Positions 9,856 to 46,111 of a stretch of 46,111 nucleotides of DNA are shown here, piece by piece. The notes beneath the pieces were generated by a model, which was not told the DNA's origin, searched no databases, and saw only the letters and a program-made list of their open reading frames with translations. Source of the stretch: Isotricha intestinalis (taxonomy: Eukaryota > Ciliophora > Litostomatea > Vestibuliferida > Isotrichidae); the NCBI GenBank assembly GCA_023807065.1, contig JAJJLU010003608.1, positions 1 through 46,111 of the forward strand, in the 5' to 3' direction. The position numbers and the translations under genes are program-made. Each line of letters opens with the position of its first letter. Position 1 is the first letter of the stretch.

Positions 9856-11158
9856 ATGGAGAATCATCACCATCATCATCATCAAAGTATTAATGATACA
9901 ATTACAAAAAGAACATTTTTCAATAAATATAAACCAATAAAAAAATTAGGAGAAGGTTCCTTTGGCAAAATATATTCTTCAATAAATATAAACACAAACG
10001 AAAAATTTGCATTAAAAATGGTAAAAAAAATAAAATAAAAACATATAAAACAATAAAAATAGGAAAACAAAGAATCAAATCAAAATCTCTTAGAAGCAGA
10101 AGCATATTTATTATGTTATTTAAAAGGATGTAAAATAATAAATATATAATAAAAAAATTTTAACAGTTGGTGTTCCATCAGTAAAAAGTTATGGTTATTC
10201 AGGAGAATATAATATTTTAGTAATGGAATTATTAGGTAAATCCTTAGAAGATTTATTCCAAGAACAAAATAAAAAATTTTCAATAAAAACAGTATCAATG
10301 ATAGGAATACAAATGTTAGAAAGAATAGAATATATTCACAATAAATATATAATTCACCGTGATATAAAGCCAGATAATTTTGTAATGGGTATAGATAAGA
10401 AAAGTCACATAGTATATATATTAGATTTTGGTTTGAGTAAAAAATATAGATCATCAAGAACAAAACAACATATTAAATTTACTTCAAATAAAAAATTAAC
10501 TGGAACAGCACGTTACGCATCAATAAATGCTTTAAAAGGATGTGAACAAAGTAGAAGAGATGATTTAGAAGCAATTGGATATGTTTTAATGTATTTTTTA
10601 AAAGGAAATTTACCTTGGCAAGGATTGAAAGTCAATAAAGGAGAAGATAGATATAAGAAAATATATATTAAAAAAAAAAATACTACTCCTGAATCCTTAT
10701 GTGAAGGATTTCCTAATGAATTTAAAGATTATATTCAATATACTAGAAATTTAGGATTTGAAGATGATCCTGATTATTCTTATTTAAAAAATTTATTTGT
10801 TAAAGTTTTAGAAAAAGAAAATTGTTATTATGATTTTTGGTTTGATTGGATGAAAGAAAAACCTGATGTTTCTAATAATTTATGTAATAAATATATGAAT
10901 GTATGTGATGATCATAATATTAATTATGATTATGAGAATAAAGATAATAATAATTATATTAATGGAAATTTCTTACAAACTGGAAATAGTGATTTTGAGG
11001 TCAGAGCTCAGGAAATTAATGTTAGGAATTTAAAAAAAAATAATGTTGATGACAATTATGAAGAAGATAATAAAAATAATAATGAGAAGGAAAATAAAGA
11101 AAAGGAAGAAAATAATAATAATAATATTAAAAATGAAGAGGCATGTTTTATTTTTTAA
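9856..11158 (+). CDS. Casein kinase 1 with natural His6 and CaaX end, three exons
   Basis: Ser/Thr kinase of the CK1 family, 407 residues after splicing (exons 9856-10020, 10063-10129, 10167-11158). Catalytic features are complete: Gly loop GEGSFG (32-37), ALK lysine K54, HRDIKPDN (141-148), DFG (164-166), and the CK1 signature after it (GTARYASINALKGCEQSRRD), followed by PWQGL. Exon 2 supplies the helix-C Glu (LLEAEAYLL), and exon 3 restores LKGFGVPSVKSYGYSGEY, so both introns are needed for a whole kinase lobe. The N-terminus is MEN followed by six His. The tail is low-complexity Asn/Glu/Lys and ends EEACFIF; CFIF fits a CaaX prenylation box, suggesting membrane anchoring, which other CK1 forms achieve by palmitoylation. 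It is likely active. Confidence 0.92.
10021..10062 (+). other. Spliceosomal intron 1 (42 nt) in casein kinase
   Basis: Starts GTAAAAAAAATAAAA and ends AATAAAAATAG, phase 0 after ...FALKM. It contains in-frame stops. Removal joins ALKM to ENKESNQNLLEAEAY, restoring the kinase helix C. Confidence 0.88.
10130..10166 (+). other. Spliceosomal intron 2 (37 nt) in casein kinase
   Basis: Starts GTAAAATAATAAAT and ends TTTTAACAG, phase 1. Removal gives YLKGFGVPSVKSYG, matching the CK1 N-lobe. The intron resembles the short introns of the micro-exon array at 42.8-45.1 kb in its start (GTAAAATAATAAAT). Confidence 0.88.
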
Positions 11159-42784: not shown

Positions 42785-42811
42785 TTAAAAGATTGAACAT
42801 TGATTCTTTTC
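42785..42811 (-). other. Terminal exon encoding a CaaX box
   Basis: After the acceptor AAATAG the sequence GAA AAG AAT CAA TGT TCA reads on to ATC TTT TAA, encoding EKNQCSIF and stop in the same frame as the micro-exon codons. CSIF is a plausible CaaX signal; with a Phe end, geranylgeranylation is more likely by known specificity. This meaningful end, in exactly the frame predicted by the one-codon exons, is strong support for the model. Confidence 0.8.
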
Positions 42812-45800
42812 CTATTTAAATAAAAAAACAAAAGTACAAACTATAAAATATATAATAATTTAAGATACATTCTTTCATTCAATTAATATTTTATTTTACT
42901 TTCTTTTTTTTATTTTATCTTTTTACATTCTTTTATATAATTTTTGTATTTACAATCTTTTGTTTAATTACAATATTTTACTTCCTTTAATTTAATTATA
43001 ATATTATTTTACTGCCTTTTAATTTAAAGATATTTCGTATACATTCTATATAAATAAATTTTTTTGTTTACTTTCTTTTATTTAATTATTAATATCATTA
43101 CTATCTTTAATTTCAATATTTAAATATTTTACTGTCTTTTACTTAAATTTTTTTTGTTTTACTTCCTTTTAATTATTATTATTTTATTTTACAATCTTTA
43201 TATAATAATTTCATATTTTACTCTCTTTTGTTATTTTATGTTTTTTACTTTCTATTTATATTTAATTTTAATAATTATAATACTGCCTTTTATTTATTAA
43301 TATATTATTATTTACTTTCTTTTTTTAATTTAATATATTTTCTACTTTCTTTTATTTTCTAAATTTTTATTTTACTAACTTTTATTTATTAATTTTTTAA
43401 TATACAATCTTTTAAATAATTCCAATTTAAATACCTCCTTTTATTTCTTTATATATTTTTTACTTCCTTTTTATTTTTATTTCTTTTTTACTTCCTTTTT
43501 TAATTATTATATTATTTCACTAACTTCAATTTATTATTTATATTATTTACTGTCTTTTATTTAATTTAATTTATTTTTGTTTACCAACTTGATGCAGTTA
43601 TTATTTTTATTTACTTTCTTTTATTTTATAATTTTTTATTTAACTTTCTTAATTTGAGTATTTTATTATTTTACCATCTTTATTTAAAACATATTATTTA
43701 CTTTCTTATATTAATTTTTGATTTTTACCAACTTTTATTAGAGTATATTATTTCACTTTCTTTTATTAAATTATTATATTATTTGCTTCCTTTTAATTAA
43801 TTATTTTATTATTTTACTTTCTTTTTTTTTAAAATCTTATCTTACATCCTTTTTTCAAATTATTACATGTTTACTTCCTTATATTTATTTACTTGATTAT
43901 ATACTTGCTTAAATTATTATTTAATAAAACTTCCTTTTATTAATCATTTATTTTTACTTTCTAAAATTTCATTACATATTTAATTTTACTTCCTTTATTT
44001 CATTAATATTATTTTACTCTCTTCATTTTAATTAATTTTATTATACAATCTTTTATTTTTTATTTTAAAATTAACTTCCTTTTTTTAATTTCTTTTTATA
44101 CTTCCTTTTATCTTTATAAAATCTTTTACTTCCTTCTTTTATTTATTATTTTACTAACTTGTTTAATTAGAATTTTTTATACTCTCTTTTTTTTATCATA
44201 TATTATTTACTTCCTTTTATTGATTATTTATTTTTATTTTACCCTCTGTATACATTATTATTTTATTTACTTCCTTTTATTTTTTTATTTATTATTTTAT
44301 TATACTCTCTTATATTAATTCTCTTTTATATACTTCCTTTTATTTTTAGAAAATGGTTTTACTTTCTTTTAATCATTTATAATATAATTTACTTCCTTTC
44401 ATTTATTATTTATTATTTTACATACTTTTATTTAAAAATTATCTCATTATACATACTATTTTAATTATTATAAATATGCTTTCTTTTTATTATTAATATT
44501 TTTTACTTCCTTTGATTTAACGTTATTTTATTTTACAATCTTTTATTAAATTATCACTTTATTTACTTCCTTCCATTATTATTATTTAATTTACTTCCTT
44601 TTTTATTTATTTATAATATAATAATACTTCCTTTTATTTAAGATTTTAAATTTTACTTCCTTTTATTAACTGTTATAATGATTTACTTCCTTTCATTTAA
44701 TTATCTTTTATTTTACAAACTAACAATTATTTATCATTTGACTCTCTTTTTTGAATTTTTATATTATTTTACTTTCTTTTATTTCGTGAGTATTTATTTT
44801 ACTTTCTTTTATTTTATTAATTTAATATACTAACTTTTATTAAATTAATTTTATTTTTACTTCCTTTTATTTTATTACTTTATTTTACTTTCTTTTATTT
44901 CAATATATTTAAATTTTTACATACTTTTGTTTATTATTAGATATCATACATACTTTTATTAAAATTTTGTCATACATACTTTAATTTAATTTTATATAAT
45001 TTTACTTTCTATTTCTTTTTAAATATTTATTACTTTCTTTTATTCCATTATTACATTATTTACAATCTTTTATTTAATCATTATTATTTTACTTTCTTAT
45101 TTATTTCTAATTTATTATCTTACTCTAATTTTATTTTTAATTACTCTCTTATATTTTCATTTATATCATCCTTAATATTTTGAATAAAAACTCCTAAATT
45201 CATTTTTAATTCATTTGAAAATTCCAAATGAATTCCAATAACACTACAATTTTTTAATAAAATAATAGGTGAGCCAGAAGAACCAATATATGTAGTACCT
45301 AAATATTTTATTTTTTCTCCTTCTATTTTATTTAAATAACCTGTTTTAATTTCAAGATTTCCTCCTTGAGGATATTGACATATAGCAATTTCTTCATTAT
45401 TACTTTTTTCTATAGTCGAACAATTGTAAATATTAAAATAATCTTTTATTTTATCTTCATCAAATATTTTAATACAAGTAAAATCTAAATCTACATTTGA
45501 ATAATAAAATCTTCTTTCCATTTTTAATTCTTTTATTTCATCTGTTTTATATTTTATTGTAATAATTTTATCTCTTTCAATTATTTCTTTATTTAAAACT
45601 TTATTTGAAGTAAATAACACTTTGATCAATTTATTTTCATATGGAAATTTACAAAAAAAACCTGTTCCACTTTTTGATTCATTATTTGAATTTTTTGTTA
45701 AAATTTGGCAAGTTGAAAGTATTGATTTTTTTCTTAATGATTCTTCAATTGTTTTATCAAGTTCAAATGATTCATCAAATTTTGATTTTAATTCATTTTC

Positions 45801-45812
45801 ATTTTCTTTCAT
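42785..45812 (-). CDS. Trypsin-fold protein whose C-terminal tail is encoded by 78 one-codon exons
   Basis: My gene model is: exon 1, 45812-45145 (668 nt); a 1-nt exon at 45124; 78 exons of 3 nt between 45095 and 42838; and a terminal exon, 42811-42785 (27 nt). The total is 930 nt, exactly 310 codons (309 residues plus TAA). Residues 1-223 form a trypsin-like domain: SGTGFFCKF, then D110 in VDLDFTCIKI, and Ser179 in GSSGSP; the catalytic His position is Lys71 (FTSNKVL), so it is probably inactive. The next 78 residues are Glu/Lys/Arg-rich and coiled-coil-like, and the end EKNQCSIF is a CaaX prenylation box, suggesting membrane anchoring. If the array is not spliced, exon 1 simply stops at TAA 45143-45141. 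The splice model rests on motif regularity and frame; no transcript evidence is available to me. Confidence 0.85.
42838..43378 (-). other. Micro-exons 60-78
   Basis: Codon and first base on the minus strand: TTA 43378, AAA 43348, AAA 43318, GCA 43286, AAA 43251, AGA 43224, ATT 43195, GAA 43165, ACA 43135, ATA 43104, AAA 43074, AAT 43045, GCA 43015, GAA 42984, ATT 42956, AAT 42929, AAA 42902, AAT 42871, TTT 42840. Residues: LKKAKRIETIKNAEINKNF. The last intron (42837-42812) starts GTACTTTTG and ends TTTAAATAG. Confidence 0.82.
43406..43933 (-). other. Micro-exons 41-59
   Basis: Codon and first base on the minus strand: GAA 43933, CAA 43907, GAA 43877, GAT 43848, AAA 43820, GAA 43789 (followed by a GC donor), AAA 43759, TTG 43731, AAA 43704, ATG 43677, AAA 43647, AAA 43617, TTG 43587, ACA 43553, TTA 43523, GAA 43494, GAA 43466, GAG 43437, ATT 43408. 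Residues: EQEDKEKLKMKKLTLEEEI. The spacing of Leu, Met and Ile among charged residues is compatible with a coiled coil. Confidence 0.82.
43958..44509 (-). other. Micro-exons 21-40
   Basis: Codon and first base on the minus strand: GAA 44509, AAA 44482 (followed by a GC donor), TAT 44455, TAT 44424, GAA 44395, AAA 44365, GAA 44336, AGA 44308, GAA 44273, AGG 44245, GAA 44213, AGA 44185, TTA 44157, GAA 44132, GAA 44104, GAA 44078, ATT 44049, AGA 44020, GAA 43992, AAA 43960. Residues: EKYYEKERERERLEEEIREK. Highly charged with alternating acidic and basic residues, as in a single alpha helix or coiled coil. Confidence 0.82.
44537..45145 (-). other. Exon junction, 1-nt exon and micro-exons 1-20
   Basis: Exon 1 ends ATA AGA GA at 45145. 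A 20-nt intron (45144-45125) leads to a single A at 45124 flanked by AG and GTAAG, completing GAA (Glu). Micro-exons (codon and first base on the minus strand; each covers that base and the two below): AAA 45095, ATT 45066, AAA 45036, AAA 45008, TAT 44978, TAT 44952, TAT 44923, AAA 44891, GAA 44863, TTA 44833, AAA 44805, AAA 44775, AGA 44745, TTT 44719, GAA 44689, GAA 44659, GAA 44630, GAA 44597, GAA 44569, ATT 44539. Residues: KIKKYYYKELKKRFEEEEEI. Confidence 0.82.
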
Positions 45813-46111
45813 TTTTTATTATTAATATTACTCATATTTAATTTCATTTTTAAATTAAAATTATTTTTATTAATAATATTTCTTAAATTTTAAGTTATCA
45901 TTATTTTTTCTTCTATTTATTTTTTTTGTTCTTCATTTTTCACTTATTTTCTTTCAACCTCAACATTAAGAAAGTTAAATTGAATGATTTATTTAATTAT
46001 GTGTAATATTAATAATAAATAAATATGTAAAATAAATGGATGATTAAATGATTAATTATATATTTAATAATTTTCTGTGTTAAAAAAATGTGATGTTTTA
46101 TTGGGGATTGG
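45813..46111. other. Upstream flank of the micro-exon gene and window end
   Basis: AT-rich, should hold the promoter of the micro-exon gene. The last ten bases (tggggattgg) are unusually G-rich and match part of the inverted-repeat region at 28857-28876 in reverse complement. No telomere-like tandem repeat is visible. Confidence 0.45.

What the first reader, a model, noticed from the sequence alone, without database searches (positions are those of the whole stretch)
42785..45812. A gene tail split into 78 consecutive exons of exactly one codon
Seen directly: on the minus strand, 78 successive AG-NNN-GT units occur with gaps of 22-32 nt, without a single unit of another exon size. All 78 trinucleotides are sense codons (22 GAA, 1 GAG, 19 AAA, 7 ATT/ATA, 6 AGA/AGG, 5 TAT, 6 TTA/TTG, 3 AAT, 2 each of TTT, ACA and GCA, 1 each of CAA, GAT and ATG). 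By my rough estimate at this base composition about one trinucleotide in ten would be a stop, so around eight stops would be expected by chance, and TAA is very common in the gaps. The joined product is a coherent charged helix closed by a CaaX box. Known micro-exons are usually isolated or few; a run of dozens of 3-nt exons is, as far as I know, undescribed. Exon definition is impossible at this size, so splicing must be intron-defined and very accurate. The origin could be repeated insertion of short introns between codons, or duplication of an intron plus codon unit that lets the tail grow one residue at a time.
Basis: partly seen in the sequence, partly recalled or inferred. Interest (0 to 1): 0.98.

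Follow-up and report, generated by a model that had tools for sequence, protein, structure and literature searches.

The report
Gene tails built from one-codon exons
One gene, from what is likely a gut-dwelling ciliate, ends in 78 consecutive three-letter blocks, each flanked by splice signals and set 22-32 letters apart, and the same three-letter layout recurs on dozens of other pieces of this genome, so the cell is predicted to splice these protein tails together one amino acid at a time.

Summary
On the minus strand, 42785-45812 reads as exon 1 (668 nt), a 1-nt exon, 78 three-nt exons and a 27-nt last exon, with 80 introns of 20-32 nt (78 GT-AG, 2 GC-AG): 309 residues. Other exon sizes (0-9 tested) chain at most 2 units; 200 shuffles reach 3; no unit is a stop where 7.5 are expected.

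It is not one freak gene. In the window's 57-Mb genome, 38 of 45 contigs examined carry size-3 chains: 1,354 units, against none for sizes 0-2 and 4-12. Genome-wide a three-unit pattern occurs 496 times for size 3, 0 for size 4, and 2 (simple repeats) for size 2. Joined codons give a shared Cys motif (WELRCxxC..QFWKG...CPxCG); with anchor units left out, exons of 15 arrays are 70% identical (32% shuffled), introns 64% (62% shuffled). Four arrays with stops in register 0 are open in register 1.

Splicing is inferred: no RNA was available. CCCCAAT telomeres point to a trichostome ciliate. One array (C570) shows duplication of intron-plus-codon units. Closest known: micro-exon genes; runs of only 3-nt exons were not found in the papers searched.

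The parts
45145..45812 (-). Exon 1 (668 nt): trypsin-like domain, 222 codons plus 2 nt (GA)
   Evidence: ORF; exon end from the strict decoder; Trypsin_2 PF13365 E 2.1e-5, 25.7 bits, under the 27.6 cut-off; Lys (TSNK) at the position where 11 of the 11 relatives displayed besides P0001 have His (by eye)
45125..45144 (-). Predicted intron 1, 20 nt; holds the in-frame TAA (45141-45143) that ends the unspliced ORF
45124..45124 (-). Predicted single-nucleotide exon (A) that completes codon GAA
   Evidence: a like 1-nt exon precedes the array in other array genes
45096..45123 (-). Predicted intron 2, 28 nt
42838..45095 (-). Array of 78 predicted exons of exactly 3 nt, phase 0, separated by 77 introns of 22-32 nt; tail residues K I K K Y Y Y ... 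N K N F
44480..44482 (-). Unit AAA followed by a GC donor
   Evidence: position worked out from the intron lengths
43787..43789 (-). Unit GAA followed by a GC donor
   Evidence: position worked out from the intron lengths
42812..42837 (-). Predicted last intron, 26 nt
42785..42811 (-). Terminal exon (27 nt), EKNQCSIF plus stop; possible CaaX box
   Evidence: the CaaX reading is recalled knowledge
46100..46111 (-). Telomere-like CCAATCCCCAAT at the contig end, about 290 bp upstream of the start codon
   Evidence: repeat (CCCCAAT)n printed for Entodinium, Muniziella and Balantidium

Best explanation
The tail of this gene, from what is likely a gut ciliate, is an array of 78 predicted three-nucleotide exons separated by predicted introns of 22-32 nt, and the spliceosome would remove all 80 introns of the gene so that the tail is joined and translated one codon at a time. 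Shown directly: the array, its exclusive unit size of 3, the open frame, the same layout on dozens of contigs of this genome, conservation of the 3-nt units against diverged gaps, and one duplication of a block of units. Inferred: removal by ordinary U2-type splicing recognised across each tiny intron, probably in 5' to 3' order, so that each exon becomes attached to the growing upstream exon before the next intron goes. Also inferred is why the size is locked at 3: arrays grow and shrink by whole intron-plus-exon units, and a 3-nt exon gained, lost or skipped never shifts the frame whatever the intron phase. The tail can thus change one residue at a time, in evolution and possibly by exon skipping within a cell. 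Retention of intron 1 would instead give a short protein ending at the TAA at 45141-45143.
For: Unit size: in 45 loci (171,545 bases), chains of 5 or more hold 1,354 units of size 3 and none of sizes 0-2 or 4-12. Most of those loci were chosen by size-3 patterns, so the genome-wide controls matter: with ATAG anchors 496 hits for size 3 (backward control 2), 0 for size 4 (control 1), 2 simple-repeat hits for size 2 (control 36); with AAAG anchors 60 (control 10) against 0 for size 4 (control 3). Coding: Phe-Trp-x chain 17 hits, control 0; Cys-Pro-x 9 hits, control 0. Frame: L041, L052, L054 and L104 have stops in register 0 and none in register 1 in every chain of 8 or more units; L052 then reads as hydrophobic, membrane-like sequence. 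Selection: 15 arrays, 105 pairs, anchor units 1 and 4 left out: exon base identity 0.70 (shuffled 0.32), intron 0.64 (shuffled 0.62); for the 9 arrays not first found by the Phe-Trp pattern, 0.67 (0.34) against 0.63 (0.62), 36 pairs. A 1-nt exon precedes the first Cys unit in 15 of 19 loci tried; A in 14, G in L113, which keeps Arg. Machinery: U1 snRNA at 72.6 bits (cut-off 69.5) with 5' ACTTACCT. Growth: C570 repeats the block TTA-TTT-GAA with its introns.
Against: No transcript, peptide or second genome was available: splicing is inferred throughout. Size-3 chains alone can come from satellites: 13 of 20 bacterial loci show them. Some arrays are imperfect: among units missed once in a chain, 12 have donors other than GT/GC (5 of them ATAAGA; L040, L041, L046, L050, L052, L060, L105, L112, L113) and 2 lack an AG; C453 has several more in a row; one copy (L110, C1677) has lost splice sites. 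Several loci did not decode cleanly (among them L034, L035, L039, L043, L050, L051, L053, L056, L060, L069, L070), some because their first exon is shorter than that decoder allows. L046 lacks the first Cys unit and has one 6-nt exon, by eye. The strict decoder rewards 3-nt exons; the unbiased evidence is. Exon identity exceeds intron identity in only 67 of 105 pairs with anchors left out, because AT-rich introns align at about 0.62 by letter content alone. The window's own tail is charged, low in complexity and lacks the Cys motif, so the conservation evidence comes from other arrays. I know of no cell in which 78 sequential microexon joins have been shown (recall).
Confidence: 0.9

Rival explanations
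1. Non-coding satellite: the gene ends at 45141 and the array is a repeat with a fixed AG-N3-GT core in the 3' region.
For: The unspliced frame stops within intron 1, 4 nt past the donor; P0001, a 96% identical protein of another assembly, ends at the same place; bacterial tandem repeats that chain at size 3 do exist (13 of 20 loci).
Against: The four bacterial repeats inspected use 3-5 trinucleotide types with identity 0.61-0.82 over all unit pairs, against 0.26-0.54 in the ciliate arrays; the window's introns are barely more alike than shuffled letters (0.65-0.69 against 0.63-0.64). Zero stops against 7.5 expected; shared protein motif and open shifted frames.
Confidence: 0.03
2. DNA-level excision: the gaps are removed from DNA during macronuclear development, as ciliate internal eliminated sequences are, and the contig shows the germline form.
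For: Ciliates do this, and gaps of 22-32 nt overlap the shortest Paramecium eliminated sequences (both recalled).
Against: 80 of 80 gaps in the window gene begin GT/GC and end AG. Array contigs C1044, C589 and C1946 carry telomere repeats at an end, as macronuclear chromosomes do. No contiguous, already excised form was found: the joined WELRC junction had 1 hit (backward control 2), in an unrelated ORF; the joined tail as protein had none in the genome (a composite query without positive control) or among about 5.8 billion proteins (only proteins of similar length sharing 5-residue words are seen).
Confidence: 0.03
3. The exons are real, but splicing of the array is partial or regulated: many units are skipped or retained, and the useful output is a mixture of tails or mainly the short form.
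For: A 3-nt exon can be skipped without frameshift in any phase; 62 of 78 introns after the 1-nt exon's own pair carry an in-frame stop if retained; non-canonical donors in some arrays; flatworm micro-exon genes vary by exon skipping (passage of PMC7653826).
Against: Every splice site of the window's 78 units is intact, and residues set by single 3-nt units are conserved across arrays, which argues for accurate use.
Confidence: 0.25

Closest known systems
Micro-exon genes (MEGs) of schistosomes and tapeworms
   Same: Runs of consecutive exons whose lengths are multiples of three; skipping is frame-safe (passages of PMC7653826). Start of the abstract of PMC10526429: exons of 3-81 bp.
   Different: There exon sizes vary and introns reach 5 kb (same abstract start); here every array unit of the window is 3 nt, introns average 26 nt, the run is 78, and the host is inferred to be a ciliate.
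Single-nucleotide exon of Arabidopsis APC11 and of Fusarium CYP621A
   Same: A 1-nt exon flanked by two introns, as at 45124 (abstract of PMC4674806; start of the abstract of PMC12940212).
   Different: One gene family each there; here a predicted 1-nt exon recurs before the arrays of many genes and is followed by 3-nt exons.
Isolated 3-nt exons (human RPS24, Drosophila homothorax)
   Same: Exon of one codon (search listing and starts of abstracts of PMC12686416, PMC11162997, PMC7392893).
   Different: One or a few per gene.
Bicycle genes of gall aphids
   Same: Fast-evolving family found by its gene structure (start of the abstract of PMC9168663; many microexons is recalled).
   Different: Insect effector genes; no size-locked 3-nt exons as far as I recall.
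Introner-like elements
   Same: Near-identical introns in many places: in the main chains of seven arrays here introns are 0.77-0.93 identical while codons differ.
   Different: Marks of a mobile element were not sought; the copies lie at a fixed 3-nt step inside arrays, and at least one array grew by unit duplication.

Membership tests
Micro-exon gene (operational definition in a passage of PMC7653826) | At least seven exons | tested here: met
   81 predicted exons
Micro-exon gene (operational definition in a passage of PMC7653826) | At least half of exons under 70 nt and divisible by three, with four or more in a row | tested here: met
   79 of 81 predicted exons; run of 78 exons of 3 nt
Micro-exon gene (operational definition in a passage of PMC7653826) | Spliced in RNA, with variants by exon skipping | not testable with these tools
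   no RNA data
U2-type spliceosomal introns | GT/GC...AG ends and a U1 that can pair with the donor | tested here: met
   80 of 80 introns of the window gene; U1 with canonical 5' end in the genome
U2-type spliceosomal introns | Removed from RNA | not testable with these tools
   no RNA data
Non-coding satellite | Copies alike along the whole unit, core trinucleotide free to be a stop | tested here: not met
   window introns 0.65-0.69 identical against 0.63-0.64 for shuffled letters; 0 stops against 7.5 expected
Introner-like elements | Near-identical introns at unrelated loci with marks of insertion | tested here: inconclusive
   near-identical introns within arrays, and similar ones, by eye, in C453, C538, C515, C1460, C826 and C1364; insertion marks not tested
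Trypsin_2 peptidase (PF13365), exon 1 | Profile match over the curated cut-off | tested here: not met
   25.7 bits against 27.6, E 2.1e-5
Trypsin_2 peptidase (PF13365), exon 1 | His-Asp-Ser triad | tested here: not met
   Lys at the His position, by eye against 11 displayed relatives
Zinc ribbon (tail of other arrays) | Two CxxC knuckles and a profile match | tested here: inconclusive
   two Cys pairs in several arrays; Pfam matches weak: Zn_ribbon_4 in 3 of 8 typed tails, best E 0.004 (some of those tails are composites)
Trichostome ciliate (host) | (CCCCAAT)n telomeres and standard code | tested here: met
   repeats at an end of the window contig, C589, C831 and C1946; long ORFs under table 1; literature
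Trichostome ciliate (host) | rRNA placement | not tested
   the rRNA search did not complete

The most novel reading that the evidence does not exclude
A categorically new gene architecture: a codon minisatellite. The unit of tail growth is one tiny intron plus exactly three exonic bases, in any phase; units are duplicated in blocks, and intron sequences are homogenised or copied along the array independently of the codons between them. Proteins in this ciliate lineage would thus be lengthened, shortened and diversified one residue at a time without frameshift, on many different N-terminal domains.
Probability: 0.5. Interest if true: 0.97.

Novelty: new variant of a known kind. Interest (0 to 1): 0.94.

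Why it matters
It would set the lower limit of what a spliceosome can do: dozens of exons of three bases in a row, each too small for factors to sit on both sides at once. How intron-defined splicing reaches such accuracy, how introns multiply, and why exon size can be locked at three would become testable in gut ciliates, at least one of which (Entodinium caudatum) is grown in culture. It also means that gene finders miss these tails: two searches with joined tails found nothing among about 5.8 billion predicted proteins.

Tried and rejected
Contiguous copies of the tail: two database searches (8 candidates, none at E 1 or below; 38 candidates, none) and one in the own genome (none, no positive control). 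The joined WELRC junction gave one hit (backward control 2), C979, in an unrelated ORF. Other collections: two viral-contig scans gave 6 and 2 loci, none with a chain of 5 or more; one genome-contig scan gave 20 loci, 13 with size-3 chains of 5-26 units; the four inspected are GT-rich tandem repeats of 3-5 trinucleotide types, one (L097) with stops among them. The exon-1 junction WELR|GTA gave 18 hits (control 3), 11 on contigs already known and 7 new: C1460, C826, C912 and C1364 are arrays, C870 is cut off by the contig end after 3 units, C1677 is decayed, C1262 is chance. In L114 (C1364) the chain scan starts with a TAA unit; the 1-nt-exon reading puts it inside an intron. Decoders without an exon-size preference read AT-rich introns as exons in places, so the main counts rest on chains alone. 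The first paralogue test (14 of 15 arrays, exon identity 0.75) required Cys at units 1 and 4 and a Phe near unit 8, which inflates it; it was replaced. The chain on C545 (L043), counted among the 38, was not borne out by a decoder. Enrichment near telomeres was considered but is not claimed: repeat-rich arrays may also break contigs. No structure was predicted. Literature: in the listings no title or abstract start describes runs of one-codon exons; most subscription papers are not held.
Full report
What is there. The minus strand from 45812 to 42785 reads as exon 1 (45145-45812), a 20-nt intron, a single base A (45124), a 28-nt intron, 78 exons of three bases with 22-32-nt introns, a 26-nt intron and a 27-nt last exon. 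The joined frame is 309 codons and a stop. The 80 introns are 20-32 nt (mean 26.2), 78 GT-AG and 2 GC-AG. Unspliced, the frame stops at 45141-45143, and 62 of the 78 introns after the first two carry an in-frame stop. Other genes of the window decode mostly as single exons, with seven predicted introns between exons of 40 nt or more, some doubtful.

More than chance. Exon size 3 chains 78 units; sizes 0-2 and 4-9 chain at most 2; 200 dinucleotide shuffles reach 3. Permuting letters within the three codon columns gives 7.5 stops on average, never zero in 20,000 permutations.

The genome. The window is contig C1044 of a 57.3-Mb assembly. A three-unit pattern finds 60 places (backward control 10), 33 of them in the window array. 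With other acceptor anchors it finds 496 (control 2, which lists only the first places). The same patterns with a 4-nt unit find 0 (controls 3 and 1); with a 2-nt unit 2 places, both simple repeats (control 36). Sizes 5 and above were not tested genome-wide. In 45 loci, one per contig and 171,545 bases, most chosen because a size-3 pattern hit, 38 have a chain of at least 7 units of size 3; chains of 5 or more hold 1,354 units of size 3 and none of sizes 0-2 or 4-12. Chains alone are not proof: 13 of 20 bacterial loci drawn by one pattern also chain at size 3, but the four inspected are repeats of few trinucleotide types.

The joined codons are protein. In many arrays the units read Cys-x-x-Cys-x-Tyr/His-Gln-Phe-Trp-Lys-Gly and later Cys-Pro-x-Cys-Gly. 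A pattern for Phe-Trp-x finds 17 places and one for Cys-Pro-x finds 9, both with control 0. For 15 arrays compared unit by unit over 11 units, with the two anchoring Cys units left out, 105 pairs give exon base identity 0.70 against 0.32 for shuffled codons, residue identity 0.50, and intron identity 0.64 against 0.62 for shuffled letters; exon identity beats its own shuffle in 105 of 105 pairs and beats intron identity in 67 of 105. The nine arrays not first found by the Phe-Trp pattern give 0.67 (0.34) against 0.63 (0.62) in 36 pairs; leaving out units 8 and 9 as well, all 15 give 0.66 (0.43). So selection appears to act on three-base units while the introns have diverged to background.

Phase. 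In L041, L052, L054 and L104 the units themselves include stop trinucleotides, but register 1 is open in every chain of 8 or more units listed for them. L052 then reads, in part, IGVFGLVALLIILGCEIVVVFVG. One chain of L034 also has a stop in register 0 and none in register 1; every other chain listed is open in register 0. So the 3-nt size is not tied to codon borders.

A single-nucleotide exon. In 15 of 19 loci tried by one regular expression, exon 1 ends in the first two bases of an Arg or Lys codon, followed by an intron, a 1-nt exon, an intron and the first Cys codon; L040, L046, L060 and L070 did not match. The single base is A in 14 and G in L113, which keeps Arg. The window gene, read apart, has the same 1-nt exon A.

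What the proteins are. N-terminal exons differ: trypsin-like (window and L052, both under the Pfam cut-off), protein kinase with B-box (L042, L046), B-box (L035, just under the cut-off), ADP-ribosyltransferase-like (L032, under the cut-off), and no match (L041, L047). The window's tail is a charged, probably helical stretch ending in CSIF. Pfam and PDB matches of the Cys-motif tails are weak; the Pfam ones are largely zinc ribbons.

How arrays grow. C570 repeats a three-unit block with its introns, adding Tyr-Leu-Asn each time in register 1. In the main chains of L044, L052, L054, L074, L104, L105 and L106 intron identity over all pairs is 0.77-0.93 while codon identity per base is 0.34-0.53; one end chain of L052 and one of L074 have introns at 0.65 and 0.63. 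In L044 near-identical 27-nt introns lie between many different hydrophobic codons. Plain unit duplication would make codons as alike as introns, so either introns were homogenised or copied in separately, or codons diverged under strong selection. In the window the introns are barely more alike than shuffled letters, so its intact splice sites suggest long maintenance.

Host. CCCCAAT repeats lie at an end of the window contig, C589 and C831, and GGGGATT ends C1946. The same telomere is printed for Entodinium caudatum (whole text), Muniziella cunhai and Balantidium ctenopharyngodoni (passages); Muniziella uses the standard code. I infer a trichostome ciliate; rRNA could not be obtained. U1 RNA is present with a canonical 5' end.

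Against. There is no RNA. Several arrays contain donors other than GT or GC, one copy is decayed (L110), and some loci did not decode cleanly. These fit a fast-evolving family with some broken members, but also leave room for partial splicing.

Comparison. By the operational definition quoted in PMC7653826 the gene, if spliced as predicted, is a micro-exon gene. It differs in that all array exons are 3 nt, introns are about 26 nt, and the run is long. I rate it a new variant of a known kind; the bolder reading, a codon minisatellite, stands as the novel case.

Noticed in passing
window 10223-11158 (+): A kinase-like ORF also ends in a possible CaaX box (ACFIF), as do the array gene of the window (CSIF) and the one of L046 (CYLF).
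   Followed up: no
L104 (C570:17150-17850): Three-unit block TTA-TTT-GAA with its introns repeated in tandem: array growth caught in the act.
   Followed up: yes
C453 (L053/L069), L112, L113, L114, L105: Units in homogenised arrays followed by ATAAGA or CTAAGA instead of GTAAGA; broken sites or tolerated non-GT introns.
   Followed up: partly
L110 (C1677:15400-16170): Array copy with several lost splice sites, probably a decaying pseudogene.
   Followed up: partly
L103 (C831): U1 snRNA gene about 200 bp from a CCCCAAT telomere.
   Followed up: no
L041, L040, L042, L046: N-terminal domains look partly inactive: Asp at the trypsin His position in L041; altered HRD or DFG motifs in some kinase-like exons (by eye).
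   Followed up: no
L085, L087-L090, L095, L096, L099, L101 (termite-gut MAG Nt197P3bin80): Tandem repeats that chain at size 3, on many contigs of one MAG; those inspected (L089, L090, L095) are GT-rich.
   Followed up: partly
L044 (C1616:1-1334): Phase-0 array coding a Trp/Phe-rich hydrophobic stretch with no Val codon, perhaps because GTN next to AG would mimic a donor.
   Followed up: no
P0001: A 96% identical relative of exon 1 in another (NCBI-sourced) assembly ends at the same intron-borne stop, so a sister genome may have the same gene.
   Followed up: no
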